A stretch of 64,000 nucleotides of DNA from Sabellastarte sp. h YS-2021 (Eukaryota > Annelida > Polychaeta > Sabellida > Sabellidae). How positions within the stretch are numbered: the first letter of the stretch is position 1; the number at the start of each line of letters is the position of its first letter. Both the position numbers and the translations under genes were made by a program. Positions 18,666 to 62,760 of this stretch are shown here, piece by piece. The DNA lies in assembly GCA_964017235.1 (NCBI GenBank), contig OZ024931.1:136402033-136466032 (forward strand). Direction: 5' to 3'. The notes beneath the pieces are model-generated. The model was not told the origin of the DNA. It was given only the letters and a program-made list of their open reading frames with translations, and did no database searches.

Positions 18666-18927
18666 CTATCTGAACCTGTTGATTCAACTGTGAAAAATTG
18701 CTGTTGATTAAGTTGAACATGTACCTGTTTGTGTACTACACAAATATACACTTCTGCTTGCCTGTACACGATATGCTTTGGACCATCCTGAACTGGTTGA
18801 AGCCCTTGTCCAGTAGACTCTGTTGGTTTGAACCCGATGAAAATGTCCTGCTGGTAAACTGCATAGACGTATAGTGCTGCTTGCCTCAAACATATTCCAC
18901 AGTATTCCACACTGGTAAAACTGGTGT
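18666..18927 (-). CDS. Exon-like cassette E1, fully open
   Basis: A 262-bp segment with acceptor TTTGTTTCAG/ACACCAG and donor CAGATAG/GTAAAC. It is open throughout in one frame (begins TSFTSVEYCGICLRQ) and belongs to a 95-codon frame, the longest of the array. It contains an internal duplication: RQAALYVYAVYQQ is followed by RQAEVYICVVHKQ. It therefore looks like two fused cassettes, which explains its length compared with about 100-140 bp elsewhere. Its frame enters one base into a codon. No protein family is recognised. It may be a real exon of an unknown gene or the best-preserved member of a decayed array. Confidence 0.35.
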
Positions 18928-19381
18928 CTGAAACAAAATGTGCCATCAATTAGACCCATTTAATTAAAAATGTAGGAATGTATCCTCATAGTGCAAATGT
19001 CAAACTTAGGGTTTTATGTTCATGTTAATGGCTTCGATACTTCAAATTCTTGGCACTTGGAATTTGTGGTTTATAACCTCATTTGACCTCAAAACAAAAG
19101 TCAGGGTCAAATATGACCTCACAAAAAGACTTGCAACATGTGTTATATTGTCATTTGTTTCCATTTCTAAACTTCTATGACTCTAACAACAGTAATGTTA
19201 GCGCTTTTAGATGGTTTTACCCTTTAAATTAAAGGTGAAATAGAACCTCAGAAATGGATAGTAAACTCATGATTTCTTGTAATAGTTTGCACACATGAAA
19301 TCTGTACCATCCAATGATAAGACAGAAATATGCGTACTCTTGACATAGGGGGAAATATCAATTCTAAACATTAAATCTTAC

Positions 19382-19621
19382 CCTTAGCCTGATCCGGCTT
19401 TTATAATCTTGCTATTTCCTGTTGTGGTAGACTGCATGAATATAATGTGCTGATTGTCTACCAGATCCATCCCTCAGTACCCCAAACTGATGAAATGCAA
19501 TGGTTACTTCACCTGACCCAATGGTTGGACCATGTTCACAACTTGCTGGTGGTGGACACATTACACACTACTGCTTGCCCAAAGCACATCCCTTGGCATT
19601 CCAAACTGGTGACACTAGTCT
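19382..19621 (-). pseudogene. Exon-like cassette E2 (double)
   Basis: 240 bp. Acceptor TGTGTTTCAG/AGACTAGT, donor GCTAAGG/GTAAGA. The frame homologous to E1 starts TSVTSLECQGMCFGQA and stops after about 28 codons. The second half repeats CATCAGTTTGG and GCATGCAGTCTACC-like blocks, so it is a double unit like E1. Confidence 0.4.
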
Positions 19622-20356
19622 CTGAAACACAATGGTCTACCAATTAGCATCAATCTAATAGTATCAAACAGTATTTAACTGTAACAAATATATCACACAT
19701 ATCCTCATATATACAAACCACTGTCAAGTTTTTGTATAATATTGTTCTGGCAAGGACAATTATTTCACACAAAAATCAATATAAGTAAACTGAAATATTG
19801 CAATTCTGTAAACTTATTCATTTACCTGTGTAAACTAATTCTTTATGGACAGACCAAAAGGTTAATCTCGACTTCATAAAGAATAAAGATATTATAGCTC
19901 AATGGTCATGTAAACGTCTTCACATTTTGTGACACATCTTTTCCATGATTTAACCTTACTTGACCATGAAGTGAAGGTCAAAGGTTCAATATGACTTTAC
20001 AAAAGGAGAAGCAGTCTATAGTTTCATTCATGGTTCACACATTTCAAACCTACATACCATAGTAAGTGCATTGGAGCATTCAGGTGAATCATTTCATTTG
20101 ACCTTGAAAGGCGCAAGGTCATAGGACTTCAAAAATATTTGCAACACAGGGTCAGTTGTGTATCTATGACATATACTTCAGCACACCTAAAGTGGTCTTT
20201 TGCTTTCATGATGCTAAACCACTAATCGAACTAAATTCTACACGAGGTTTGAAACTCAAAAAAAAACTTTGGATACCAGTTGGTTAAAATGCTCACCACA
20301 ATCAGGTTTTGAAAAGCTATGATCATCTGTTGAAATTTCAAACCTCTGCCACTTAC

Positions 20357-20475
20357 CTGCAAACTGTTGTAGGTCTAAATCTCCTGAAGTACTTGTTTAA
20401 TACTTGTGTCAATCACGGCACACTGCTTGCCCTCGGCACGTTTTCCTCAGCAATTCAAACTTATGGGACTGGTTT
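20357..20475 (-). pseudogene. Exon-like cassette E3
   Basis: 119 bp with acceptor GTGTTGCAG/AAACCAGT and donor GTTTGCAG/GTAAGTG, a near-perfect 5' splice site. No frame is open throughout. Its longest frame contains RKTCRGQA, shared with E7. Confidence 0.4.
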
Positions 20476-20672
20476 CTGCAACACAATGGTCAGTAAATTA
20501 GCATAATTTATATCACTGCATTACAACCAAACTTTACCAAACTTATCAATTAATATATATTTTAGTTCTGTTTGTTAACATTTAAATACATTACCACTGT
20601 TCATATAAGAGAGAATAACATTAGTACTTCACAGTTAGTTGATCTTATTTGACCTTAAAGGAAAAGTCTAAG

Positions 20673-21752
20673 CTCCAAAATGAGATAATAGAAGTAGTGA
20701 AACAGTACAAAAATCTGGATACTTTCAGAGCAGTGTCAGTTATATAAAGCTCCAAACAATGTTTAAGTAGACAAAATAACGTCTAGAGAAAGAAAATGTA
20801 TGTAAAGATGAAGTACTAAAACAAGACAATTCAATAGCAAGATTGATGTAAATCAGTACACTAAAAATTATGATGCTGCAAAATTTATTGATTGGAGAAT
20901 AGCCGTCAATAGAAAAAGCACAATTATGTAAAAGTGCATATTATAATCAGTTGCAGCAATCCATATATCTTTGTCAAAAGAGAAAGAGGTCTCAAATATG
21001 GCAGGTGAACACACTTTGACAGAGCCAAAGCTAAAGCCCATACCATGAGGCACACCTACACCTTCTGACCAATGTCCCTACCAAGTGTCAACCTTCTACA
21101 CCTCATGGCATCAAAAAAATAACCCAGACAAAAGTTTAAAACTCATGCTCACTATGACAAGTGAAAAGGTTAAATCGAGGTCACACCATGACATTGCACA
21201 CCTACAACCCCCAACCAATGTCCCCACCATGTATCAACTTCCTACACCATACGGTTTCCAAGATATAGCCCAGACAAGATTGTATATTTCAAGGTCACTA
21301 CAGCAAGGTCAAAGGTCAACTCACGGTCACACCATGATGTTGCACACCTACACCCCTCAACTAATGTCCCTACCAAGCAACAACTTTCTACACCTTACAG
21401 TTTCCGGGATATAAGCCGGACAAGATTTTATAGGTCAAGGTCACTATGGCAAGGTCAAAGGTCAAATAAAGGTCATACCACAACATTGCAACTTTCTACA
21501 GCTTACAGTGTCCCAAATATAGCCTGAACAAGACTTTATAGGTCAGGGTCACTACAGAAAGGTTAAAGGTCAAATCAAGGTCACACCATGATGTTGCACA
21601 CCTACACTCTATGTCCCTACCAAGTATCAACTTCCTACACCTTACAGTTTCTTGAGATACAGCCCAGACAGCCTTATTCCCGCCGCCCACCTGCCCATCC
21701 GGACTCCACTGGTGAAAACAATACCCCGACAGCCCTCAAGGGTTGTGGGGTA
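20673..21752 (+). mobile_element. AGGTCA-rich minisatellite element, copy 2
   Basis: The 5' part shows GATACTTTCAGAGCAGTGTCAG and the ATTATGTAAAAGTGCATATTATAATCAG block, also found at 40.5 kb and 55.1 kb. Four to five repeats of about 140 bp follow (anchors near 21187, 21329 and 21583). The terminal part is CAGCCCTCAAGGGTTGTGGGGTA, ending at 21752. TCAAGGTCA occurs repeatedly. The extreme 5' terminus (TACCCCACAGCC in other copies) is missing. Confidence 0.7.
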
Positions 21753-21959
21753 AAAACCATTTTACTTCATTATCTGTTGAAATTAAGCTCATAATTTTAA
21801 AAACAGCATCCTTGGCAGGCAAGAGCCTCAGCCTGCAGATACAACTAAAAGGACAACTACATTGCAATTTGGGAAAATCTAAGGGACTATTTCAGTTGTA
21901 AGAAGTATAGAGAACACATGAGATGTCAGATATAAGAACTTTCATGATGTTAAAGAAGG

Positions 21960-22560
21960 GAGAATGGCCATTATAGTCTGATGACCCCACCTGACCTTAA
22001 TGCAAGGGTCGAAGGTCAAACTTGACACTCGCAAAAGATTCAGACCATTGTATGTTTCTTACAAGTTGTTTTCATATTTCTAAACCCTAGGAACAATTTT
22101 AAATAGAGATACAAGGCCTTTCCCTACTTGACCTTGAAGCCGACATCAAAAGTCAAATTTGACATGAGCAAAAGATTCACAGGCCATGATTTCCTTAAGT
22201 TGTTTCAACATTTGGAAGCCCTAGAACACAAAATAAAAGATACAAGAGCTTGTTAAAATGATGACTCAAACTGACCTTGAAGCAGGGGTCAAAGACCAAA
22301 TTCAACACTTCCTAAACATTTGCAGGCCATGACTTCATGTATGGTGGTTAATTTTGCATTTCAAGCTGTAATAAGGAGCAATAATGAGGGAGATACAAGG
22401 CCATTTTTGTGGGATGACCTCACTTGACCTTGGAAGCAGGTCTGCAAAAGATTAGCAGGGCATGAAGTTATTTTTTCATTTCAAACCCCTACAAGCAATC
22501 ATCAGGGAGATATTAGGCCTTGTTGATATGATGACCCCCAATTTGACATTAGAGATGTGT
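21960..22560. repeat. Tandem repeat, about 138 bp x 4-5
   Basis: Units begin near 21981, 22124, 22261, 22414 and 22531. Each has a TGACC...TTGACCTTGAAGC block, GCAAAAGATT, a (C)AGGCCATGA block and GGGAGATACAAGGCC or variants. Copies are diverged. Confidence 0.7.
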
Positions 22561-23115
22561 CATGGCAAACAATTTGTGCAAATCCGATGAAGCTAGCTGC
22601 AATATTTTAAGTTTTAGAACACATAACTGATCAATTGGCTATGGTGGCAAACTTTGTTTTTTAAAATAAGAAAGTTTTGTACAGATGTGTTTTCATAGCC
22701 ATAAACATTCTCTGCAAATTTGGTGAAGATATCTTCATAAATGCATGTACGCATGCATGCGTACACACACATGCATGGAAATTATTTCGTAATCTCCCAA
22801 CTCCGGCCTATATCCAGTGGGAGATAAAAATGTGACTGTTTTAAACTTACATTTAACAGTGCCCCCCTTTTTACTAAAGAAGTTTAAGATGAAAAAGAAT
22901 ATAAAATCTTGGGTTATAGTCCTACCCTGTATTTTTTAATTTATTCTGCTTACTTTGTGCTTAACATCGTTTGTAATACACTATAATAAATCACTATGGG
23001 TTGTTGAGTCAGAGGGGACAGTGGCTTTTTTGGAGGTCAAGATTCTGCATTAGACAAAGTCAGGCACTTTGCAAGATACAACCAACTGTTTAAATTTTAA
23101 ACCTCAACCACTTAC

Positions 23116-23214
23116 CCTTAGATTGATGTAGGTCAAAATCTCCTTCCAATGTACTGTTAACTCTGCTATCAATCATCTGGTGCACACACAGCAGAAATGT
23201 TGTGGGACCGGTCA
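23116..23214 (-). pseudogene. Exon-like cassette E4
   Basis: 99 bp. Acceptor ATTGTGTTACAG/TGACCGGT, donor CTAAGG/GTAAGTG. It keeps GGAGATTTTGACCTACATC near the donor. This segment is open there, where several other copies read TAG. Confidence 0.35.
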
Positions 23215-23545
23215 CTGTAACACAATACTCCGTAAATTAGCACAATTTCACTATAAACGATGCATACTTGACCTTACTTAACTTTGAAGGAAAGGTCAAA
23301 GTTTCAACTGATTCACAGTCCATGGTCTTTTTGTGAAATTTTCACATTTCATGCCTATATACTATAATTATGGTTTCATAAATTTCCCTTCTTGGACACT
23401 TCCGGTGTCTTAAAGGATGTCTATATTATTTGGTCAGAATTCACTCAAAACAGCTCTCTATGTTACAAAGTGATTCAAGTTTTGTAGCAAATATCAGAGT
23501 ACTGCATGCTAAAACTTGAAACAAAAATAGCATCAGAGATGCCCG

Positions 23546-23700
23546 TACCCCACAGCCGAGGGAAATATTTTTAGCACCATGAGATATAGAAGTACTGTAT
23601 CAGTACAAAGTTCAGGATACTTTCAGAGAACTGTCAGTTATATAAAGGTTCAAACAATGTTTAAATAGAGAAAATAATATCTAAAAGAAAGATAATGCAT
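23546..23700 (+). mobile_element. AGGTCA-rich element, 5' terminal fragment
   Basis: It begins TACCCCACAGCCGAGGG, matching the terminal repeat of the family, and continues with GGATACTTTCAGAGAACTGTCAG before homology fades near 23700. It lacks the minisatellite. Confidence 0.6.
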
Positions 23701-23978
23701 ATACTTTATCTACATCTGGCATGGCCGAATTATGGTTTGGATGTTTTGAATATTACCATGCATACAGAAGTGGTAATACATTCAATGAATGCTTATGTGT
23801 GGTGTTGGAGCAAACAGCGAAAAACACCAGATACTTGAGACCATCAACTTCTGTATTCTGGTTCTTAAACTTTGAGCAGAAATTCAAAAAACTTCTGCGA
23901 AATTGTCATATTGTAGCCTTTCTACCACTGTTATCAGAACACAATCTGCTAAATCTAAGAAGCAATCTAGCTTCTTAC

Positions 23979-24109
23979 CCTTGGGCTGTCGTAGGTAAAT
24001 CTCCTAATGTCCTGGTTTAAGCCTGCTGTCAATCAACTGATAGCACACAGCACAAATAAGTGTCCTAACGCGCGTTTCGTCATCAACAGGAAAATTTGTG
24101 GACTCGTCT
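23979..24109 (-). pseudogene. Exon-like cassette E5
   Basis: 131 bp. Acceptor TTGTGTTACAG/AGACGAG, donor CCCAAGG/GTAAGAAG. The body has GGAGATTTACCTACGACAG. The spacer on its 3' side (23800-23970) resembles the one beside E8 (26500-26660). Confidence 0.35.
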
Positions 24110-24349
24110 CTGTAACACAAAGATTTGTCATTTAGCCTCTCAATATACTGAAATGAAACAAATGTATCAGCAAGCATCTACATGGAGGTTTTCATGTTTT
24201 TAAAGGTATTATCACGGTACATTCAGAGATGTCGGGGCTTTACGGGGAGTTGACCTACTTTAGATTCCATTTGATGAAGATTTTCAACTACAAACCAAAT
24301 ATGGGCAAACTGCCACTAAATGTTTAAATTTTGAAAATTATAGACTTAC

Positions 24350-24469
24350 CCTTGGGCTGGCGTCACTCGTAAGCTCCTTCCAATGTACTGGCGTCACTTG
24401 GTGAGGCACGGCACAAATGCTAGCCCACAACACGTTTTTCTCAGCAACCCAGACCTGTGGCACTAGTTT
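24350..24469 (-). pseudogene. Exon-like cassette E6
   Basis: 120 bp. Acceptor ATTGTGTTACAG/AAACTAGTG, donor CCCAAGG/GTAAGTC, both strong. One frame is open across it (KLVPQVWVAEKNVLWASICA at its start) and continues into both flanks, giving an 85-codon frame. The frame matches E7 (WASIC.V.HQV) only after an early shift. Confidence 0.4.
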
Positions 24470-24688
24470 CTGTAACACAATCATTGGCAAATTAGCATCA
24501 TTCATATCAGACTTTTCTCCAAACATTTCATGGAAAAATGAAATAATATTTATTAAGGTGATTATGGTCTGAAAGTTTGTGGTCCTGCTGGTCAACAGTG
24601 TTTTTAAAACAACTGAAATTAACCCAATGATAGATAATATATGATATAATAGCTACTTTATACAGCTGCCATAAAAGAGGAACATTCA

Positions 24689-24712
24689 TTTTTTTTTTTT
24701 TTTTTTTTTTTT
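24689..24712. repeat. Poly(T) tract, 24 nt
   Basis: An uninterrupted T run followed by an A-rich stretch. It could be the A tail of a - strand retroposed fragment, but no body is recognised. Confidence 0.85.
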
Positions 24713-24805
24713 GAAAAAAAATAAGATGAAATATTTTTGGTCCAAAAAATAAGAATGGGAAAATGTCATTTATTTTCGCTCAATTAGGTTAAAAATGTTG
24801 ATTGA

Positions 24806-25023
24806 TTTGTTTATTTGGGGTTTTTACGTCGCTTTCAACACTGTACAGGTCATATCACGACGGGTAGTTGGAAGGGCAGAGGAAACCAGTACATATAGTT
24901 CGCTAGGGTTCTCTACTGTAAACTGCCGACCAATGGCAAGCAACTACCAGCTTTCCCACTTACGGCCATGATGGGGATGGAACCCCGGCCGCAGAGGTGG
25001 GAGGTGAGAGTGTTACCACTAAC
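24806..25023 (-). mobile_element. tRNA-Gly-like SINE, 5'-truncated
   Basis: In reverse complement it reads from within the A box through a B box (GGGGTTCCATCCCC), the family body (GGGAAAGCTGGTAGTTGCTT...CTACCCGTCGTGATATGACC) and the tail GTTGAAAGCGACGT...CCCAAATAAA. The flanking 11-bp duplication ATGTTGATTGA lies at 24795-24805 and 25024-25034. The first dozen or so bases of the tRNA head are missing compared with the copy at 35319. Confidence 0.85.
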
Positions 25024-25104
25024 ATGTTGATTGAAATATGACAATAAAATTACTGGAACATTTGTATGGTATTGTAGCAAAACCACCAGAGATCTTTGGT
25101 GGCC

Positions 25105-25232
25105 TGGTGGTTAACATGTTTGGTATCTAATCACAGGCTGTTAACTCTGTGTGGATTTAACTCCCAGAAGTGACAATTCAGAGGACCTTCGCCAATATGA
25201 CCCTGGCTGCTGAACAGAATGTAAAACTCCAA
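25105..25232 (+). mobile_element. Second SINE family, + copy
   Basis: It reads GGTGGCCTGGTGGTTAACATG (A-box-like), TTTGGTATCTAATCACAGGCTG and a B-box-like GGATTTAACTCCCAG. The family body follows: AGTGACAATTCAGAGGAC...CCAATATGACCCTGGCTG, then CTGAACAGAATGTAAAAC. The same architecture interrupts fucosyltransferase copy A at 43681-43839. Confidence 0.7.
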
Positions 25233-25914
25233 TTATGTTTTTTAAGGAAATCTCTAGTTTTGACTGGCATTGTGGCACAGCTACTTATACAGATCTGTGG
25301 TGACCTAGTCTAGAAGTGATGTCGAGCAATCACTGTAAAAATAGAAACTGTGGTCTATTGCACAGACTTCATGGCCAATTCAATCGCAAAAATAGCCTCA
25401 AATGAAGGATTTAGGGGTTGATAAAGTCCAAGCAATGGTAATTTATTTCTATTGTAAAATAGCAGTTAATATTTTATTCCATACTGTCAGTTTATTGTTT
25501 ACAATTTATTTTCCAGATTATACCTCAAAATTTGGTTCATCGAATACAACAAAAGACGATGCTTCTCAAAAATAACACACAAAATTATGACGACGCACTT
25601 TTGCCAACTGCACAGTCCTCCGTTTCATAATTACAAATAATCACATGGAATAAGTGTTTATAGTGGCGAGGAATACAATCTAAAATGAAATTAACTGTTA
25701 GGATGTTTTAATATCGTCATAAAATACAAATATAACCAAAAAATAGTTTTTGTTTATTTATTATGCTTGTTTAAAAATCACTTTTGAGATATTGTTGGGA
25801 ACATATCGCTATTGGTTGCTGGGAGTTGGAGAAGTCAATAAGTGGACATCAGTTGGGCAAGATTCTCCACGACAAACCAACAGGTATTGGAAATTTTATA
25901 CCTTATCCACTAAT

Positions 25915-26050
25915 CCTCAGCCTGCTGTAGGTCTAAAATCTCCTTCAATGCACTGGTTTGACCCTAGTGTCAATCACTTGGTGATGCACGACACAAATGC
26001 TTGCCCACCACACGTTTTCCTCACCAACTCGAGACTTGTCAGACTGGTTT
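25915..26050 (-). pseudogene. Exon-like cassette E7
   Basis: 136 bp. Acceptor TGTTAACAG/AAACCAGT is intact. The donor is damaged, with AGG/ATTAGT where sisters have AGG/GTAAGT. One frame reads TSLTSLELVRKTCGGQA and stops after about 26 codons. Confidence 0.4.
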
Positions 26051-26670
26051 CTGTTAACACAGTGGTCACTAGATTAGCATAACATACCTAACTTTATTCA
26101 ATCCAAACTTGTAACAAAATTTATCAGCATGTATCTTCATTACTTTTGTTCATATTTAAATGCATTATCACTGTGCACAAAAAATCAGTGTTTTACACTT
26201 GACCTTGATTCACCTTGAAGGAAAGATTAAAATTTAAAATTGTTTTCATATTTATTTCATGCTTGATAACCATAATTATCCCTCCTCTGATATTGGTGTC
26301 GGGGATGTCTACATTATCATGCCAAAATGCATTTAAAACAGCTCCTCATGTTATAAAAAGATTTAATTTTTGTTGCAAATACCAAAGTGCACTGAGTTAA
26401 TACTTGATAAAAACTTTTAAGCCCTTGTCCATTGAAACTGAGCTCAAAACATTACAAAGATCCCAAGGACTTTTTGATTATTACAGACATTTCAAGATGC
26501 TGGTTACAAATGAATGAGAAAAACACTGGAGCTCTGAGACCCTTAGACCTGGTTCATAAAGTTTTGAGCAGAAATAAAGAAATTTTTGTGAAATTATACA
26601 ATATTGTTGCTTTCTCCAACTGTTACCAGAACACAATCTGCTAAACCTGAAATTCAATTTAGGTTATTAC

Positions 26671-26811
26671 CCTTGGGCTGTTGTAGGTCGAAATCTACTG
26701 GTAACAGCTGGTGTAAGCCTGCTGTCAATCACCTGATGGCACACGGCAGGAATGTTTGTCCTACACACATTTCCTCAACTCTCGATGACACAAAAACTTG
26801 TTGACTGGTCA
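26671..26811 (-). pseudogene. Exon-like cassette E8
   Basis: 141 bp. Acceptor TTGTGTTACAG/TGACCAGT, donor CCCAAGG/GTAATA. It keeps GTAGATTTCGACCTACAACAG before the donor. No frame is open throughout. Confidence 0.35.
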
Positions 26812-27010
26812 CTGTAACACAATGGTTTGTCAATAAGTATCTCAATATACTGAAACCAAACTTAAATCTAAGTAAGCATCAATATAGAAGTTTTTAAAAG
26901 ACATTATCATGGTACACTCAGAGATGTCAGGGCTTTACATTTGGCCAGGATTCTCCACCACAAACCAACAATTGGTAAGCCGCCATACCTAATGTATTAC
27001 ATTTTGAACC

Positions 27011-27197
27011 CCGGGGTTTGGTTCCCGGCACGGCCTCAAGTGGGAAAGCTGGTAGTTGCTTGCCGTTGGTCAGCAGTTTACAGTACAGAACCCTGATGAA
27101 CTGTATGTACTGGTTTCCTCTGCCCTTCCAACTACCCGTCGTGATATGACCTGTACAGTGTTGAAAGCGACATAAAACCCAAAATAAATAAACAAAT
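27011..27197 (+). mobile_element. tRNA-Gly-like SINE, 5'-truncated
   Basis: It starts near the B box (GGTTTGGTTCCCGG), continues through the body CAAGTGGGAAAGCTGGTAG...CTACCCGTCGTGATATGACC and ends GTTGAAAGCGACATAAAACCC with an AAATAAATAAA tail. A 12-bp duplication with one mismatch (ACATTTTGAACC at 26999-27010, ACATTGTGAACC at 27198-27209) flanks it. Confidence 0.85.
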
Positions 27198-27267
27198 ACA
27201 TTGTGAACCTCGCTTAACCTTTGTGGGAAAGATACTGCGCCTGCAAAGCAGATTAGATTACACTTAC

Positions 27268-27402
27268 TCTCACACTGCTGTAGGTCTAAATCTCCTTCTG
27301 GTGTACTGGTTTGACCCTGGTGTCAATCACTTGGTGATGCACGGCACAAATGCTTGCCCACGACATGTTTTCTCGGCAAACCAGACCTGTGGGGCCGGTT
27401 TT
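27268..27402 (-). pseudogene. Exon-like cassette E9
   Basis: 135 bp. Acceptor TTGTGTTGCAG/AAAACCGG, donor GTGTGAGA/GTAAGTG. It has GGGCAAGCATTTGTGCCGTG and GGAGATTTAGACCTACAGCAG. It is the last copy recognised toward the upstream end of the array. Confidence 0.4.
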
Positions 27403-27814
27403 CTGCAACACAATCATCAGTAGATCAGCATCATTCATATCAGATTTTTCTCAAAACATTTGGTGAAAAGCTTATCATTATTCTTAAAAAAACTGATATT
27501 ATCCGATGGCAGATAATTGACAATATGTGATATACAAACTTTTTTTATGCAGCTGCCATAGAAGAGGAAAATTTTCAAAAGAAAGAACAGCTTAAAGAGT
27601 ATATCAAAGTAAGGCTTTTTTAAAATCAAAAATACTGTAACCAAGTTAGCTGGGGATCAAAAATGGTCTCAGACCAGCGACTAAAACTTAAAATCCGATA
27701 CAATTTTGTCTGTTTTAGCATATCCAGGGGCGAACAATTTAATGGACACGACAGCAAAACGATCAGGCCAGTACTTTTTCCGTATGTCTGATGCACTCTC
27801 CTGTCCGTAAGACA

Positions 27815-43280: not shown

Positions 43281-44701
43281 CTAAGTCCATGAAGATTTAT
43301 CCACATTTTTATAAAACTGTGTCGGTTTATAACATTTAATCTGTGGATTCCAAAAAAGATCTAACCTGTCATAAGTCTTTCTGACATTTTTTGCAACATT
43401 CAGGTAATCACACAAATTGCATTGCATTGGTGGATGATTTACAATTTTATAAACTCCTTTCCAGGAGAGATATATGTTATATAGCTCATCATTACCATCT
43501 AACATAATCAGATACTCAGCCAGTTCCTTTGGTGAAGCAAAGTCCTTTATGTCAATGTATGAATTTGGTGGCATCAGTTCTGAATAGTTGTAAGCACCCA
43601 AAACAACTGGTACAACATCAGCATGTATGGCTTTCCAGAGCTTCTCTGTCACATAATCATCACAAACACTGTTCTCAAAGTCAAAGTCAAAGTCAAAGTT
43701 GGGGTTTAACGTCCCGTTCAACAGCCAGGGTCATATTGGGACAGGTTCTCAGCATTGCCACTTGTGGGACTCGAACCCACAGAGGTGACAGCCTATGATT
43801 AGATGCCAAACTTGCTAACCACTAGGCCACCGAGGACCTCACTGTTCTCAAAGGATAGGTAAAATTTGTATGTGGTCTTGAGCATATTGAGGCACACTAA
43901 TTCAGATTCACGTAGGGAACGTTCACACTTCAGACTTCCGCATTTACCATAGATGTCCACATCAATATAGTTCTGCAGATGTTTCACATACTCAAACCTC
44001 TTATTCTTTGTTTGACAATGACTCACAAACCAAGCCACCAATTTGGACCTTCCCTGGGCATAGTTTCTATTCATCAAGGCCATATCTGGGATTTCTCTTT
44101 TCAAAAACAACCCTCCATTGACATGTTTCAGATGGCTACTGTTCGTCCAAATATCCGAGGTGCGATCATAGGTCCAGGTTGTGTTGAACATTCCATTATA
44201 TCTGGAATAGTTACCCTTGTTTATCGGACTTTCACGAATATGCATGATCCATTTCTGATCTGGTAATCTAACAGTAGGGAAACTGTTTACATATTTCATA
44301 TGAAACAGCAATGCATCACTGGTGAGAAGTTCATCTTTGTCATCAGTTACGAGACAGTTTGTAAATTTGTAAGTCTTGAATGCATCACTTCCAACACCAA
44401 ACCACTTGCCTTTGCCTTTGTTATGTCTTGTCCAGTACAATATCTTAAATATCCTTATCCCTGATTTATTGCTGGCAGCCAGTGACTTGTCTGTCAGCCT
44501 GTAGTGTTCAGAAGTAACAGCATTGTTACCACTCAACATCTCAAACTGTAGCTGGGTAGGGAGATTTGACTGGTACAGAAATTTCAGGTACAAAACAGAA
44601 ACTAAGAAGCATTTACTGATCAGTAAAAGGACTAATAGACTCATACACCTGAATCTCATCATTTCAATTGTACATAACTTACTCATTTTTTCTTGGTTCA
44701 A
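43281..44701 (-). pseudogene. Alpha-1,3-fucosyltransferase (GT10), copy A, split by a SINE
   Basis: The family transfers fucose from GDP-fucose to N-acetylglucosamine-containing glycans as a Golgi type II membrane enzyme. The gene is one exon. A short basic N-terminus precedes a signal-anchor at about residues 18-38 (SLLVLLLISKCFLVSVLYL), then a stem. GT10 blocks follow: WIMHIRESPIN, FNTTWTYDRTSDI, SKLVAWFVSHC, VDIYGKCG, and the donor-site motif FYLSFENS / DDYVTEKLWKA. A 159-bp SINE (43681-43839) with a 14-bp duplication sits inside FENS and shifts the frame, giving a 5' frame ending at 43799 and a 3' frame starting in the SINE. Downstream it keeps ELMPPNSYIDI, which copy B lacks. The start at 44701 matches copy B; two further Met follow within 15 residues. 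Without the SINE the gene would be full length, so this is probably a recent loss. Confidence 0.85.
43681..43839 (-). mobile_element. SINE inserted in fucosyltransferase copy A
   Basis: 159 bp in reverse complement. Head GGTCCTCGGTGGCCTAGTGG (A box TGGCCTAGTGG), B box GGGTTCGAGTCCC, body AAGTGGCAATGCTGAGAACC and CCAATATGACCCTGGCTG, and tail GTTGAACGGGACGTTAAACCCC followed by (TTTGAC)n. The duplication CACTGTTCTCAAAG lies at 43667-43680 and 43840-43853 and is perfect, so the insertion is young. Copies B and C lack it. Confidence 0.93.
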
Positions 44702-45055
44702 AGTGTTTTCCTCTATTAAATTTCAATCAATGTGTTACTGCCTTATACACAAACGTAACTATGCTATTAATGTGTAGAGTTTGATGTCATTTTAGGAGCT
44801 CTGAACTCACAAACAATATTGTCCACACTGAACAATGCCACCAACAAAAAATGTAACTTTATTCATATACATCTCAAGTATGAGCAATTGTGTGACATAG
44901 TATCACCAGTAACAGGTGTTCCAATTCATGATAGGAAAATTGCCTTCACATTATCATAATGAGAAAGTGTTTTACCAAAAAAATACTTCAAATTTTTATA
45001 TCCTGTTCAGCATTATACCGATACTTGTACTATATTATAGGATTATACTGAGACA

Positions 45056-48104: not shown

Positions 48105-49217
48105 TTATTGAAAAAGTGGTTTCCATAAACTCCATGACTCTTCGAAAATATTTTCTTTTGAATTTATTACCGATATATACTTTTGTTCATAGTATCTTTT
48201 TTTTAATATTATTTTTAGATGGTCCATTTTTGGCAAGAGTTTCTGTTTTGAACACAAAAATATATATTCCCTTGTTAAAATTAATATAAAATTCATTGGC
48301 AGAAAATTCTGGTCTTGGACTAGGTATCCAAACAATTTATTTACTTCACTTAACACGTAATTTTGATTTATTTTTTCCTTTATCCATTCAAGAATGCTAG
48401 ACCATAAAGTTTGAACATTACTGCATTGTGTGAACAAATGCTGAATTGTTTCCACACTATTACCACATAAGCCACATGTATTTGAATCTACAATCTTAAG
48501 TTTAAACAGGTAACTCCGGGTAGCTAATATATTATATATCAATTTGTATTGGAACCATATGGTTGAATTATCTGTTGTTACCCTGAAGCAAATTTTGTAT
48601 ATTAGCGACCACACCTTTTTAGATAAAATTGTCCCCAATCTTAGATTCCATCTTGTCTCGCACCGTCTTGGTAGTTCTGATTTATTTTTAATAAAAATAT
48701 TATAGTAGGTTTTACTACTCGAATTTAGTTTCAAAAATGTCCGAATATGAAATGGAATATATGGTCTTGTCAGCATATAGTCACCTGATTGTGAGTACTT
48801 TCTGATAAAAGTGTCTACCATTTTTTTAACACGGTAATATTCTAAAATATTCACACTAAAACGGTAGTCTTGGCTAAGTTGTTTTTTGGATAAAGGAACA
48901 CCAGCAGAGTCAACCAAATCACCAATAATTCTTATGCCTTGTTTTTCCCAATGTGGGAGGAACATATCTTTCTGTATCCTTTCATTGAGCCATACATTTA
49001 ATAGCAGAATGTCACTGTTTGATTTTATCTCCTGTAGAGTACAGAATTCCATGTAGTAATTAAATACATTATTCCAAAAGGGATTACACTTCTTCAATAA
49101 TTTTTGACACCACCCCGGACCTAATGATTTAATTCTTGAAAGATTACCCACAGTATCAAGCAGTAGATTTAACCAGGGTGCATTTGTATTTAAAATTATT
49201 TTCTTTATCCATGTCAA
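48105..49217 (-). pseudogene. LINE ORF2, C-terminal part
   Basis: 370 codons in frame with the reverse-transcriptase segment but separated from it by one TAA at 49227-49229 (reads ...DIILFE, stop, SLKLTWIKK). It has the post-RT thumb/connection region typical of L1/Tx1 ORF2 and a cysteine/histidine cluster at about residues 248-268 (CGLCGNSVETIQHLFTQC). The natural stop is at 48105. The TAA can be explained by a single base change in a codon such as CAA or AAA. Confidence 0.8.
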
Positions 49218-49226
49218 TTTCAGTGA

Positions 49227-50465
49227 TTACTCAAAGAGGATAATATCCACCATTTTTAGACCACCATTTATTTTTTCAGCACATAGATCCTGTCTATTTA
49301 TTTTTTCCGGTTTATTATTCCAAAGAAACCCAAATATTTCCTTACTTAATGCTTTCAAGAAGTTTTCTGGAGTAGGGATAGTTAAAAATAAGTGTGTGAA
49401 TTTAGAAACTATGAGGGTTTTTATTACTGTTATCTTCCCTAAAGGGGTCAAGTGTCGTGTATTCCAATTTTTAATTATTTTTCTTGCTTTAATAATGGCT
49501 CTATCATAATTTAAATTCGGTATCTTATTTAGATCCATTGTAAAGGAGATTCCTAAGAGGTCAAACTCTGTGGTGTCCCAGTCTAATTTTCCTTTTACAT
49601 TTAATTGTTCTTTACATTTACTCTTGCATCCTATCCATATTAGCTTTGTTTTGTCTGAGTTCATTTTTAATCCAGAGAGGGAGCCATAGATTTCCAGGAT
49701 GTTCAGGGTTGCTTGAAGGGAGCCCAAGCTTCCATCCAAAATTATAGTTGTGTCATCTGCAAACTGTACAATTTTATGTTCTGTTTTACCTATTATTATC
49801 CCTTTCAAACCAGGGTTTGATACTATCATTATATTTAATATTTCTCCTGCAATTAGGAATAGATATGGTGCAATTGGATCGCCTTGTCTACAGCCCTTCT
49901 CTATCGGTATCGGGTCGGAAAGGAACCCACATTGTTGCACCCTTGCTTGTATGTCATTATTAAACAGCTTGATCCATTTAATAATAGAATCATCAAAACC
50001 AAAGAGCATCATTGATTTATATATGAATTCCCATGATGTTGAATCGAATGCTTTCTCGAAGTCTATACTAACCAAAAGACCAGGGATGTTTTGTTTTTTT
50101 GTTTCGAATAACAGATCATAGATTAGTCTAGTACAGTCACTTATAGATCTTCCTTTCAGAAAACCTGTTTGGTTTTTCGAAATTATTATATCTAATTGTG
50201 GTTTAATACGTGTTGCTATGGACAATGATGCTAATTTATATGTAGAGCACAATAATGAAATTGGTCTCCAATTTTTTAGAAATTTTCTATCTTTGTTCCC
50301 TTTTGGTAGACAGGTTATTATACTTTCCCTTAGAGTAGTTGACAATTTACCTTTTTTAAAACAACTATTTAGTGCATTTCTCACAAAATACTTTAAGCGT
50401 TTCCAGAAAATTTTTAGAAAATCTGCAGGGAGACCGTCCAGACCAGGAGTTTTGTTATTTTTCAT
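49227..50465 (-). pseudogene. LINE ORF2, reverse-transcriptase part
   Basis: 412 codons from NNKTPGLDGLPADF (RT block 0/1) through WRPISLLCSTYK, ISKNQTGFLKGRSI, SIDFEKAFDSTSWEF, GCRQGDPIAPYLF and the catalytic block IVQFADDTTII to NSDKTKLIWIG. All hallmark blocks of the L1/Tx1 reverse transcriptase are intact, including the FADD aspartates. It copies LINE RNA into DNA at a nicked target. The frame actually continues upstream past 50465 to the frameshift near 50588. A premature TAA ends it at 49227. Confidence 0.88.
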
Positions 50466-50497
50466 TTGTTTCAGTGATGTTCCTAGTTCTTCAACTG

Positions 50498-50950
50498 TTA
50501 ACAGCTCATTATATTTAATTTTAGGAACTGTCGGAATTGTATTCTTTGTAATACATTCTTCAAAGGTCTTTTGTTTCTCTGGATTTTTTTGAACAATTTT
50601 GCATAGAAGTCTCTAACAGACATTAATATTTTCCTTTGGTCAGTTACTAAGGTACCATCATTAAGCTCTACTTTTTTTATTATTTTTTCCACAAAGTTTT
50701 TATTTTCTAATTTGCAGAAGTACTTTGATGGGCGTTCTCCTTCATTTATCCATTGGATTCTTGCCCGTATCATTGCTCCCCTAATTTTATCTTCTCTTAA
50801 TTTTTCCAATTCTTGCTTTTTGTCATATAATTTTTTGTTTATTTCCTCCAGGTTATCTTGTCCTTCTAATAATTGAATATCATTTTTTAATTTATTTTCT
50901 AGATTTTCATTTTGCTTTTTTAATTTGGAAGAATACTTTATAGACTCTCC
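50498..50950 (-). pseudogene. LINE ORF2, linker between endonuclease and RT
   Basis: In frame with the endonuclease after one TGA at 50951-50953. The peptide has a Lys/Glu-rich stretch, then RARIQWINEGERPSKYFCKLE and TDQRKILMSVRDFYAKLF, the usual L1-type linker. Near 50586-50592 a run of A (in FKKI versus QKNPEKQ) marks a one-base frameshift, after which the RT frame takes over. The homopolymer may be true mutation or sequencing error. Confidence 0.75.
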
Positions 50951-51895
50951 TCATATTCGAAGATACAAACATTCTAAAAAGATATCATCATCTATCGTGA
51001 AAGTCAACTCTTCGTCTGTTTTTATTATATAGTCACAATTGTAAATGGGGATGGCATATTTAAGCTTTTCTTCATCTATTATATTATTAATCATATTCAA
51101 ATAGTCTGGATTTTTAAGTAATCCAGTATTTAGTTTCCAGGTCCCTTTTCCAATTTCAAATTTATGAAGGGTTAAATCAAGTTCCACAATCGAATGATCG
51201 GATCTGTAACTAGGAAGAATATTACAACCTCCTATTACATCCATGGTACAACTTGACACCAGGAAATAATCGAGCCGTGCCTGTTTAACCGGATTCTTCC
51301 TTCTCCAAGTATACCTTTGGATATCTGGATGTATTGATCTGTATGCATCCAGTAGTTCAAAATTATCCATAAGTTCCATAACGTGTTGCCTAGACTTTGG
51401 GTTATTTATATTCTTGTAATTTTTACTGTCTTTTTGGGGGTCTAATACCAAGTTGAAGTCCCCACAAATTATTAAATAATCGAAATTAGGACTATTCTTT
51501 ATCAGTTGTTTGATCTTTTCAAAAAAATCTGGTTTGTCCGAATTTGGAGCATATAGTGAAATGACATTAAGTTTGAAGCAACTTGTTTTGATTATTAGTT
51601 GGATGTAATTTCCCTCCTGATCTTTATTAATTTCGACCACTTCGTGTTCAAAATTATTATTCAAAAGGATCCCAACTCCCCGCGCATTTGTTCTTTGGCC
51701 ATTTAAATAACAGTTATTATTCCATATTTGTTTTGTTAATTTTGTATCTAATTCTGTTAAATGGGTATCCTGTATGCATACTATCCCTGCACCGGTTTGT
51801 CTTAGGTAATTTAATACATCTGTTCTTTTCAATTTGTCACGTAGACCCTGGCAGTTTACAGACAACACTTTTAATTTATTTCCTAAATTGGACAT
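50951..51895 (-). pseudogene. LINE ORF2, AP-type endonuclease part
   Basis: 314 codons starting MSNLGNKLKVLSVNCQGL. Endonuclease/exonuclease/phosphatase motifs appear in order: VNCQGLRDK near residue 13, CIQDTHL near 40, ISLYAPNSD near 113, ICGDFNLVLD near 144, QARLDYFLVS near 204 and the catalytic SDHSIVELDL near 233. It would nick target DNA to prime reverse transcription. It is ended by TGA where the frame otherwise continues (LRI, stop, GESIKYSS). The start at 51895 is the first Met consistent with L1/Tx1 ORF2. Confidence 0.88.
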
Positions 51896-57668: not shown

Positions 57669-58889
57669 CTAAGTCCAAGAAGATTTATCCACATTTTTAT
57701 AAAACTGCGTCGGTTTATAACATTTAGTCTGTGGATTCCAAAAAAGATCTAATCTATCGTAAGTCTTTCTGACATCTTTTGCAACATTGAGGTACTCACA
57801 CAAATTGCATTGCATTGGTGGATGGTTTACAATTCTATAAACTCCTTTCCAGGAGAGATATCTGTTATACAGTTCATCATTACCATCTAACATAATCAGA
57901 TACTCGGCCAGTTCCTTTGGTGAAGCAAAGTCCTTTATGTCAATGTCTGAATAATTGTAAGCACCCAAAACAACTGGTACAACATCAGCATGTATGGCCT
58001 TCCAGAGCTTCTCAGTCACATAATCATCACATAAACTGTTCTCAAAGGATAGGTAAAATTTGTATGTGGTGTTGAGCATATTAAGGCACACTAATTCAGA
58101 TTCACGTTGAAAGTGATCACACTTCAGACTTCCGCATTTACCATAGATGTCCACATCAATATAGTTCTGCAGATGTTTCACATACTCAAACCTCTTACTC
58201 TTTGTTTGACAATGACTCACAAACCAAGCCACCAGTTTGGACCTTCCCTGGGCATAGTTTCTATTCATCAAGGCTGTATCAGGGATTTCTCTTTTCAAAA
58301 ACAACCCTCCATTGACACATTTGAGATGGCTACTGTTCATCCAAATATCCGAGGTACGATCATAGGTCCAGGTTGTGTTGAACCTTCCGTTATATCTGAA
58401 ATAGTTACCCTTGTTTATTGGACTTTCACGAATATGCATGATCCAATTCTGATCTGGCAATCTAACAGTAGGGAAACTGTTTACATATATCAGATGAAAC
58501 AGCAATGCATCACTGGTGAGAAGTTCATCTTTGTCATCAGTTGCCAGACAGTTTGTAAATTTACAAGTCTTGAATGCATCACTTCCAACACCAAACCACT
58601 TGCCTTTGTTAGCCCTTGTCCAGTACAATATCTTGAATATCCTTATCCCTGATTTATTGCTGGCAGCCAGTGACTTGTCTGTCAGGCTGTAGTGTTCCAA
58701 AGTAACAGCATTGTTACCACTCACCATCTCAAACTGTGGCTGCTTAATGAGATTCGGCTGATACACAAATTTCAGGTACAAAACAGAAACTAAGAAACAT
58801 TTACTGATCAGTAAAACAACTAATAGTCTTATACACCTGAATCTCATCATTTCAATTGTACATAACATACTCATTTGTTCATGGTTCAA
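57669..58889 (-). CDS. Alpha-1,3-fucosyltransferase (GT10), copy B, full-length ORF
   Basis: A single-exon frame of 406 residues, within the usual GT10 length. A type II topology is seen: signal-anchor at about residues 19-40 (IRLLVVLLISKCFLVSVLYL), stem, then the catalytic domain. GT10 blocks include WFGVGSDAF, WIMHIRESPIN, FNTTWTYDRTSDI, KLVAWFVSHCQTK, VDIYGKCGSLKC, FYLSFENSLCDDY, YVTEKLWKAIHADVVPVVLG and a Cys-containing C-terminus. N-glycosylation sequons include NTT and NSS. It should use GDP-fucose in the Golgi. One oddity is AYNYS running straight into DIDIKDF. Copies A and C have ELMPPNSYIDI there, so 21 bp and seven residues are lost from the conserved P..SYI segment, which may abolish or alter activity. 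The start at 58889 is conserved with copy A; internal Met at residues 7, 14 and 15 are alternatives. Confidence 0.88.
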   Translation of the reverse strand: MNHEQMSMLCTIEMMRFRCIRLLVVLLISKCFLVSVLYLKFVYQPNLIKQPQFEMVSGNNAVTLEHYSLTDKSLAASNKSGIRIFKILYWTRANKGKWFGVGSDAFKTCKFTNCLATDDKDELLTSDALLFHLIYVNSFPTVRLPDQNWIMHIRESPINKGNYFRYNGRFNTTWTYDRTSDIWMNSSHLKCVNGGLFLKREIPDTALMNRNYAQGRSKLVAWFVSHCQTKSKRFEYVKHLQNYIDVDIYGKCGSLKCDHFQRESELVCLNMLNTTYKFYLSFENSLCDDYVTEKLWKAIHADVVPVVLGAYNYSDIDIKDFASPKELAEYLIMLDGNDELYNRYLSWKGVYRIVNHPPMQCNLCEYLNVAKDVRKTYDRLDLFWNPQTKCYKPTQFYKNVDKSSWT

Positions 58890-59214
58890 AGTGATTTCCT
58901 CTAATAAATATAAATCAATATGTTACTCCCTTAAACACATATGTAACTATGCTATTAATGTGTAGGGTTTTATTTCATTTCAGGAGCTCCCAACTCACAA
59001 ACAATGTGTCCACACTGAACAAATGCCAAGAGCAGAATTGTAACTCTATTCATATACATCTTAAGTATGGGCAATTGTGTGACATAGTATCACCAGTAAC
59101 AGGTGTTCCAATTCATGACAGGATAACTGTCTTCACATTATCAGAATGAGAAAGCTTTTCACAAAAAAAAATTACTTGAAAGTTTTTACATCCTGTTCAG
59201 CAGTTAGGATTATA

Positions 59215-61527: not shown

Positions 61528-62760
61528 CTAACACAAATCTGCAGAAATTTGACAAAGCAAAGTCCGTGAAGATGTATTCACATTTTTATAAAACTGTGTA
61601 GGTTTATAACATTTAGTCTGTGGATTCCAAAAAAGATCTAATCTATCATAAGTCTTTCTGACATCTTTTACAACATTGAGATATTCACACAAATTGCATT
61701 GTACAGGTGGATGCTTTACAATTTCATAAACTCCTTTCCAGGAGAGATACCTGTTATACAGTTCATCATTATTATCTAACATAATCAGATATTCTGCCAG
61801 TTCCTTTGGTGAAGCAAAGTCCTTTATGTCAATGTATGAATTTGGTGGCATCAGTTCTGAATAGTTGTAAGCACCCAAAACAACTGGTACCACATTATTA
61901 TGTATAGCCTTCCAAGGCTTCTCTGTCATGTAATCATCACAAAGCCTGTTTTCAAAGGACAGGTAAAATTTGTATGTGGTGTTGAGCATATTGAGGCACA
62001 CTAGTTCAGATTCACATCAAAATCGTCCACATTTCAGACTTCCGCATTTACCATAGATGTCTACATCAATATAGTTCTGCAGATGTTTCACATACTCAAG
62101 CCTCTTACTCTTTGTCTCGCAATGACTCACAAACCAAGCCACCAATTTGGACCTTCCCTGGGCATAGTTTCTATTCATCAAGGCTGAATCTGGGATTTCT
62201 CTTTTAAAAAACAACCCTCCATTGACACTTTTCAGATGGCTACTGTTCGTCCAAATATCCGAGGTGCGATCATAGGTCCAGGTTGTGTTGAACATTCCAT
62301 TATATCTGGAATAGTTACCCTTGTTTATCGGACTTTCACGAATATGCATGATCCATTTCTGATCTGGCAATCTAACAGTAGGAAAACTGTTTACATATTT
62401 CAGATGAAACAGCAATGCATCACCGGTGAGAAGTTCCTTTTTGTCATCAGTTGCCAGACAGTTTGTAAATTTACAAGTCTTGAATGCATCACTTCCAACA
62501 CCAAACCACTTGCCTTTGTTATCCCTTGTCCAGTACAATATCTTGAATATCCTTGTCTCTGATTTATTGCTGGCAGCCAGTGACTTGTCTGTGAGGCTGT
62601 AGTGTTCGGAAGTAACAGCATTGTTACCACTCACCATCTCAAACTGTGGCTGGGTAGGGATATTCGGCTGATACACAAATTTCAGGTACAAAACAGACAC
62701 TAAGAAACATTTACTGATCAGTAAAAGGACTAATAGTCTTATATAACCGAATTCCATCAT
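61528..62760 (-). pseudogene. Alpha-1,3-fucosyltransferase (GT10), copy C, decayed
   Basis: Same single-exon gene as copies A and B, with several lesions. An in-frame TGA at 62017-62019 (GRF, stop, CES where B reads HFQRES) splits it into 247- and 157-residue parts in the same frame. Upstream, the codon before the Met pair is TAA where A and B have GAA, so only the internal Met at 62760 can start it. The normal stop TAG is now TTG, adding ten residues (LLCQISADLC). Conserved residues have changed: FENS to FENR and TEKLW to TEKPW, next to the donor site. The ELMPPNSYIDI segment is intact. A pseudogene is by far the simplest reading. Confidence 0.85.

What the first reader, a model, noticed from the sequence alone, without database searches (positions are those of the whole stretch)
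18666..27402. Tandem array of nine or more exon-like cassettes with splice sites
On the - strand the same roughly 100-140-bp body recurs, each preceded by a pyrimidine-rich CAG acceptor and most followed by GTAAG-type donors. Spacers are also related, so whole exon-intron units were duplicated. E1 and E2 are double bodies. Splice sites are better conserved than any one reading frame, which is unusual: decay should hit both. Possible explanations are a decayed gene of repeated exons, an alternatively spliced or non-coding transcript, or an element that carries splice signals.
Basis: partly seen in the sequence, partly recalled or inferred. Interest (0 to 1): 0.72.

Follow-up and report, generated by a model that had tools for sequence, protein, structure and literature searches.

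The report
Tandem exon array, probably noncoding
In an animal genome, probably a mollusc's, one exon with its splice signals stands in nine copies in a row; the signal that starts each exon has stayed intact while the exon text drifted with no lasting protein code that could be detected, which suggests a spliced noncoding RNA gene rather than a dead one, though no RNA could be checked.

Summary
Nine related exon-like units lie on the - strand between 27402 and 18666. All nine have CAG acceptors and eight of nine a GT donor (six GTAAG); c8 and c9 have double bodies. Introns were copied too: a three-exon block (about 27.57-25.89 kb) recurs at about 24.69-23.09 kb. In the six answered searches of the 1.79-Gb host genome, exon matches better than chance lie only inside this array, so a dispersed element is not supported. 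The acceptor changes less than the exon (0.50 against 1.43 changes per column; P=0.0004), and a branch-like CTNA is kept in all nine. On terminal branches the acceptor is also quiet (P=0.006), while exon changes show no third-position excess (28 of 91). Six of nine copies have stops in all three sense frames. One 16-codon core hints at ancestral coding, but not when independent changes are counted (P=0.13). Donors are no better kept than exon. Best reading: exons of a noncoding, or no longer coding, spliced transcript, organised like the local repeats of the lncRNA Firre and possibly born from a coding gene. Rivals: recent decay of a coding gene; UTR or alternatively spliced exons. Transcription is not shown.

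The parts
27268..27402 (-). c1, exon-like copy (135 nt), type A of first three-exon block; donor GTAAGT
26671..26811 (-). c2, exon-like copy (141 nt), type B; donor GTAATA
25916..26050 (-). c3, exon-like copy (135 nt), type C; usual donor lost, alternative AAG|GTATAA 14 nt further on
24350..24469 (-). c4, exon-like copy (120 nt), type A of second block; one frame open throughout; donor GTAAGT
23979..24109 (-). c5, exon-like copy (131 nt), type B of second block; donor GTAAGA
23116..23214 (-). c6, exon-like copy (99 nt, internal deletion), type C of second block; one frame open throughout; donor GTAAGT
20357..20475 (-). c7, exon-like copy (119 nt), type C; donor GTAAGT
19382..19621 (-). c8, double-body exon-like copy (240 nt); donor GTAAGA
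18666..18927 (-). c9, double-body exon-like copy (262 nt), 3'-most; one frame open throughout; donor-like TAG|GTAAAC is weak, may be the last exon
27403..27432 (-). example of the conserved 3' splice region (branch-like CTGAT plus ATTGTGTTGCAG) before c1; the same module precedes the other eight copies
25890..27573 (-). first three-exon block [A B C] with introns (ends approximate)
23092..24686 (-). second three-exon block [A B C] with introns, homologous to the first (ends approximate)

Best explanation
A single-locus, old, tandemly amplified set of exons of a spliced transcript read from the - strand. Exon-intron units, and once a three-exon block, were copied by unequal exchange (inferred). 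The copies kept the 3' splice module (branch-like CTNA, TTGTGTTNCAG) and mostly a donor, while the exon bodies took substitutions in all codon phases, frameshifting indels and stops. The product today is most likely a multi-exon noncoding RNA in which accurate splicing matters more than exon wording. The repeated exon module probably acts by number, like the exonic local repeats of Firre, as reiterated binding or retention units (inferred, untested). The ancestor may have been coding. Shown: array anatomy, no exon match above chance elsewhere in the genome in six searches, acceptor constraint, no codon constraint detected over the exon as a whole. Inferred: transcription, splicing, current function.
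For: Nine copies, all on one strand, all with CAG. Acceptor -12..-1: 6 changes in 12 columns over eight copies (c6 left out); first 75 nt of exon 1.43 per column over 68 columns; intron 2.21 over 28; 0 of 57 exon windows are as low (minimum 10); permutation P=0.0004, terminal branches only P=0.006. Three of the acceptor's six changes are at -4, and C(-26), T(-25) and A(-23) of the branch-like site are the same in all nine copies. Exons show no codon phase: mean identities 0.695, 0.704 and 0.707 in seven copies; whole-exon coding score 0.48 at best of six frames, simulation P=0.38, against 1.33 for the right frame of two fucosyltransferase paralogues of the window. Terminal changes by codon position, summed over the three blocks: 32, 31 and 28. 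The longest open stretch in the joined exons is 93 aa, not more than in shuffles (P=0.23). Exon GC 0.46, intron GC 0.36. Exon matches above chance only in the array in six genome searches.
Against: No RNA data at all. Donors are no more conserved than exon (25 of 36 against 399 of 587), and c3 lost its donor. In one of ten pairs (c1/c3) the acceptor is less alike (7 of 12) than the exon (104 of 132); I put this down to an inserted base in c3's acceptor. The branch-like block taken as eight columns reaches only P=0.03. The seven-copy margin is one change. No conserved RNA fold in the exons, no Rfam match. The core block has a coding-like signal. Acceptor constraint could date from a coding past: the terminal-branch test is only P=0.006 and rests on parsimony with few sites.
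Confidence: 0.5

Rival explanations
1. Recently decayed protein-coding gene of repeated exons. The exon encoded a short repeated peptide unit and splice sites were kept while it was translated; the gene then died, and stops and frameshifts appeared before the splice sites eroded.
For: The 16-codon core has pN/pS 0.30 in six deep pairs in one frame against 0.92 and 1.29 in the others, and 0.75 in three recent pairs; coding score 1.40, simulation P=0.005, block chosen after looking. c4, c6 and c9 have one fully open frame, which in c4 and c9 is the core's frame and in c6 the frame of the core's second half (an extra base splits its core). Six of nine exon lengths are multiples of three, taking c3 at its lost donor. 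The core's frame runs on over 4 of 8 junctions (c2-c3, c5-c6, c6-c7, c7-c8), where chance gives 2.7 (P=0.26).
Against: Counted as independent changes, third positions hold 13 of 29 changes in the core (P=0.13), and over the exon terminal changes show no third-position excess, while the acceptor is still quiet on terminal branches. Six of nine copies have stops in all three sense frames. No relative of the c4 or c9 peptide better than chance elsewhere in the genome, none for six exon peptides in Pfam, none for c9 in the PDB.
Confidence: 0.27
2. Untranslated or alternatively used cassette exons of a neighbouring protein-coding gene, of which only some copies (such as c4, c6, c9) are translated or the others are skipped or trigger decay of the mRNA.
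For: Exon-sized units with good signals; c4, c6 and c9 each have one fully open frame; the core's frame runs on over 4 of 8 junctions; no transcript ends are known, so the array could belong to a larger gene.
Against: No candidate host gene was recognised in the window and 100 kb on each side: by eye the long open frames look like retroelements and fucosyltransferases; only ten frames of the window were Pfam-scanned, so short coding exons could have been missed. In one search the frame breaks at 4 of 8 junctions.
Confidence: 0.13
3. Neutral relic: an old local duplication of an intron-exon stretch without any recent function; the splice signals survive by luck.
For: In the c2/c5 pair exon and intron are alike (0.79 and 0.75 identical), over four pairs exon and intron are equal (0.68 each), and donors are no better kept than exon.
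Against: The acceptor block changes about three times less than exon and no exon window of equal length is as quiet; C, T and A of the branch-like site are kept at one distance in all nine copies.
Confidence: 0.1

Closest known systems
Firre (mammalian lncRNA) with its local repeats
   Same: Repeats found mainly in one locus; one repeat type (RRD) overlaps exons, 7 of 13 in human and 11 of 23 in mouse; further repeats lie in introns (passages of PMC4820808).
   Different: Firre RRD copies have a median identity of 93% in human and 91% in mouse (same passages); here ten compared pairs are 55-82% identical in exon. No expression, nuclear retention or protein binding is known here. No sequence relation was tested.
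Multi-exon lncRNAs in general, whose splice sites are among the best-kept parts
   Same: Conservation peaks near splice sites (passages of PMC2926783) and exons are GC-richer than introns (abstract of PMC4338330); the acceptor and the GC difference agree here, the donor does not.
   Different: Those are comparisons between species; here the comparison is between tandem copies in one genome.
lncRNAs derived from protein-coding genes (Xist from Lnx3 and others)
   Same: Derivation of lncRNA exons from exons of lost coding genes is documented (passages of PMC5577775 and PMC2430539).
   Different: Here no coding ancestor or orthologue was found; the hint of coding is one 16-codon block.
Tandem exon duplication arrays in coding genes
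   Same: Exon with flanking intron copied in tandem, exon size 99-141 nt for seven of nine.
   Different: No frame runs through the whole array and no codon constraint was detected over the exon. (The description of such arrays is recalled, not from a call.)

Membership tests
Spliced exon array (real exons) | Acceptor, branch and donor signals in register in the copies | tested here: met
   CAG 9 of 9; CTNA at -26..-23 in 9 of 9; GT 8 of 9
Spliced exon array (real exons) | Junction reads | not testable with these tools
   no RNA-seq available
Multi-exon lncRNA | No codon constraint, no long open frame | tested here: met
   with a weak contrary hint in one core block
Multi-exon lncRNA | Transcribed and processed | not testable with these tools
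   no RNA data
Firre-like local-repeat lncRNA | Repeat found in one locus and hardly elsewhere | tested here: met
   (queries from c1, c4, c7, c8, c9); the c2 unit did not complete, and the tool warns that very common words are skipped
Firre-like local-repeat lncRNA | Nuclear retention, hnRNPU binding | not testable with these tools
   needs experiment
Protein-coding gene with tandem duplicated exons | Open frame through the exons and purifying selection on codons | tested here: not met
   six of nine copies have stops in all three sense frames and the core's frame breaks at 4 of 8 junctions; whole-exon score P=0.38
Transposable element carrying splice signals | Dispersed copies in the genome | tested here: not met
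   DNA and pattern searches match exon only inside the array
snoRNA or miRNA host gene with repeated units | Structured small RNA in the introns | tested here: inconclusive
   no Rfam family at gathering score; six relaxed matches, all E 2 or worse and far below gathering score; unknown families not excluded

The most novel reading that the evidence does not exclude
A lncRNA locus caught in the change from protein-coding to noncoding: a gene of repeated exons whose peptide unit was under selection in the early duplications, lost its frames copy by copy, and whose exons nevertheless stay under selection to be spliced, so that splicing itself or the number of exons became the function.
Probability: 0.18. 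Interest if true: 0.62.

Novelty: new member of a known kind. Interest (0 to 1): 0.4.

Why it matters
Tandem copies within one genome give a replicate experiment on which parts of an exon are kept. Here it is the acceptor, with the branch-like site, and not the codons. If the RNA is real, the locus would let one test whether lncRNA exons are retained for the act of splicing, and how a coding exon array can turn noncoding. It would also be a candidate for a Firre-like local-repeat organisation outside mammals.

Tried and rejected
Dispersed element: not supported, exon matches above chance only in the array. The three matches outside it fall on query positions 541-607, window about 19140-19074, an AGGTCA-type repeat in the intron between c8 and c9; the one has E 7. 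Coding on the window + strand: the best antisense frame scores 0.48 per codon, not above simulation. Known RNA families: none at gathering score, six chance-level. tRNA genes: none (bacterial setting). Conserved exon fold: none. Pfam for six exon peptides and PDB for c9: none. A first parsimony run with nine copies misaligned c6, which carries a deletion, so its permutation value (0 of 100,000) and the nine-copy Poisson value (3e-7) are inflated; I rely, which drops c6. Stop counts in the core's frame are lower than in the other frames, but stops of those are shared by descent (TGATTGA), so I do not use them as evidence of coding. The very low P values treat related pairs as independent and are not relied on. 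Papers: five searches; I saw the listings, passages of PMC4820808, PMC2926783, PMC5577775 and PMC2430539, and the outline with abstract of PMC4338330. No title or abstract start listed there described an array like this, but the searches were narrow.
Full report
OBSERVATION. The region was read on the - strand and searched on both strands with single-copy seeds. Nine copies of one unit lie on the - strand, at c1 27402-27268, c2 26811-26671, c3 26050-25916, c4 24469-24350, c5 24109-23979, c6 23214-23116, c7 20475-20357, c8 19621-19382 and c9 18927-18666. A profile of the nine finds these nine in the window plus 100 kb on each side; the next match has E 2.1. All nine begin after CAG. Eight have GT at the donor; six read GTAAG. 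Of the eight donors compared (c1 to c8), six match at least 7 of 9 consensus positions, which 0.6% of positions of the region do; c2 matches 6, c3 3, and c9's weak donor 6 (the consensus MAG|GTRAGT is recalled). Copy c3 has lost its donor, but AAG|GTATAA lies 14 nt further on. c8 and c9 hold two bodies each.

HISTORY. Self-comparison shows that introns were copied with the exons. A block with three exons (c1, c2, c3, about 27.57-25.89 kb) recurs as c4, c5, c6 (about 24.69-23.09 kb), and the flanks of c7 match those of c3 and c6. Insertions interrupt the array: a SINE-like repeat at about 27.2-27.0 and 25.0-24.8 kb, and a longer repeat with internal tandem arrays at about 21.7-20.7 kb. Exon identity in the ten pairs compared runs from 0.55 to 0.82, so the array looks old; no date is given because no rate is known for this organism.

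UNIQUENESS. The window lies in an assembly of 1,785,957,881 bases in 647 contigs. Six searches of it were answered: DNA of c7 (3 matches, all in the array), DNA of c8-c9 (itself and three matches that fall on an intronic repeat), the c9 open frame (itself and one match at E 7), the acceptor pattern with up to 3 mismatches (2 matches, both in the array), DNA of the c1 unit (5 matches, all in the array) and the c4 frame (3 matches, all in the array). The tool scores only the best candidates and warns that very common words are skipped; it also missed some of the nine copies, so diverged copies elsewhere could be missed too. The unit around c2 could not be searched.

SPLICE SIGNALS AGAINST EXON. 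On a tree from exon columns of eight copies (c6 left out because of a deletion), the acceptor columns -12 to -1 carry 6 changes (0.50 per column), the first 75 nt of exon 1.43 per column over 68 columns, the intron 2.21 over 28. None of 57 exon windows of 12 columns is as low (minimum 10 changes); permutation P is 0.0004, and 0.006 if only terminal branches are counted (4 changes; exon windows 5 or more). In the seven-copy alignment the acceptor is also the quietest window, by one change only. Three of the six acceptor changes are at position -4. In all nine copies C, T and A of a CTNA motif stand at -26, -25 and -23; taken as an eight-column block the branch-like site reaches P=0.03 there. 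CTNAY is a usual form of an animal branch site (recalled); c5 reads CTAAA. That the degenerate positions of the signals are among those that vary is what selection for splicing predicts. The donor does not stand out: in four pairs 25 of 36 donor sites are identical, against 42 of 47 at the acceptor, 399 of 587 in exon and 515 of 758 in intron; acceptor and donor together against exon give P=0.02. In one of the ten pairs (c1/c3) the acceptor is less alike than the exon, which I ascribe to an inserted base in c3.

CODING. Identity by codon phase over seven copies is flat: 0.695, 0.704, 0.707. A substitution score by frame is at most 0.48 per changed codon over the whole exon (simulation P=0.38), against 1.33 for two fucosyltransferase paralogues of this window in their frame. 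The joined exons have a longest open stretch of 93 aa, as in shuffles (P=0.23). Six of nine copies have stops in all three sense frames; c4, c6 and c9 each have one open frame. The core's frame runs on over 4 of 8 junctions (2.7 expected, P=0.26), but every copy of the longest in-phase run, c5 to c8, has a stop in that frame except c6. For coding: a 16-codon core (c1 exon nt 51-98) scores 1.40 in the array-sense frame (P=0.005 with seven copies; 0.90 and P=0.007 with eleven bodies; one of four stretches tested, picked after looking), and its pN/pS is 0.30 in deep pairs and 0.75 in recent ones. When changes are counted once on the tree, third positions hold 13 of 29 changes in the core (P=0.13); on terminal branches over the three blocks of the exon the counts by codon position are 32, 31 and 28. 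I read this as a possible coding past and no detectable coding constraint in the recent past. Frameshifting indels between copies blur the phase and reduce the power of these tests.

OTHER EVIDENCE. No Rfam match at gathering score and six chance-level ones, no tRNA, no conserved fold in seven exons, no Pfam match for six exon-derived peptides and no PDB match for c9. Exons have GC 0.46, introns 0.36. Long open frames in the window and 100 kb on each side look mostly like retroelements, plus fucosyltransferase genes; only ten window frames were scanned against Pfam, so the other labels are by eye.

EXPLANATION. Constraint on the acceptor, on branches where the codons look free, points to a transcript that is spliced but not translated through these exons. 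The closest known organisation is Firre, with a local repeat in 7 of 13 human exons that is found almost only in that locus (passages of PMC4820808). Conservation peaks near splice sites (passages of PMC2926783) and GC-rich exons (abstract of PMC4338330) are known marks of multi-exon lncRNAs, and birth of lncRNAs from coding genes is documented (passages of PMC5577775 and PMC2430539). What the RNA does is not known; a role of the repeated exon as a multiplied binding or retention module is inference by analogy. The main rival is a gene that died recently enough for the splice sites to be intact. The terminal-branch result argues against it but does not exclude it.

VERDICT. The interpretation as an element is not supported, the noncoding-transcript interpretation is favoured, and the decayed-gene interpretation remains open. 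Without RNA or a second species it stays a candidate.

Noticed in passing
window 43281-44722, 57669-58922, 61528-62760, - strand: Cluster of GT10 fucosyltransferase genes: the copy at 57.7-58.9 kb is one 417-aa frame; the one at 61.5-62.8 kb is split by an in-frame stop; the one at 43.3-44.7 kb is split near 43.7-43.8 kb, where a dispersed repeat (also at 25232-25089) lies. (the 43-kb copy was not itself Pfam-scanned; it resembles the others by eye).
   Followed up: partly
about 86.2-84.9 kb left of the window start, + strand: A 412-aa open frame whose start resembles by eye the fucosyltransferase frames of the window.
   Followed up: no
window 48105-51895, - strand: LINE-like retroelement with endonuclease and reverse transcriptase frames.
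   Followed up: no
window 15.4-16.1, 20.7-21.7, 40.0-40.8 and 54.7-55.4 kb: Four copies of a repeat; in three of them Tandem Repeats Finder reports arrays of 108-146-bp units (not at 54.7-55.4 kb), rich by eye in AGGTCA-like motifs; the copies share homology beyond the arrays.
   Followed up: partly
window about 27.2-27.0, 25.0-24.8 and 35.3-35.5 kb: SINE-like repeat, three copies, 87-93% alike, two of them inserted in the exon array.
   Followed up: no
introns upstream of c3, c6, c7, c8 and c9 (for example 19140-19074): An AGGTCA-type repeat recurs by eye in the introns before these exons; the one before c9 has relatives on other contigs. Whether it helped the duplications is unknown.
   Followed up: partly
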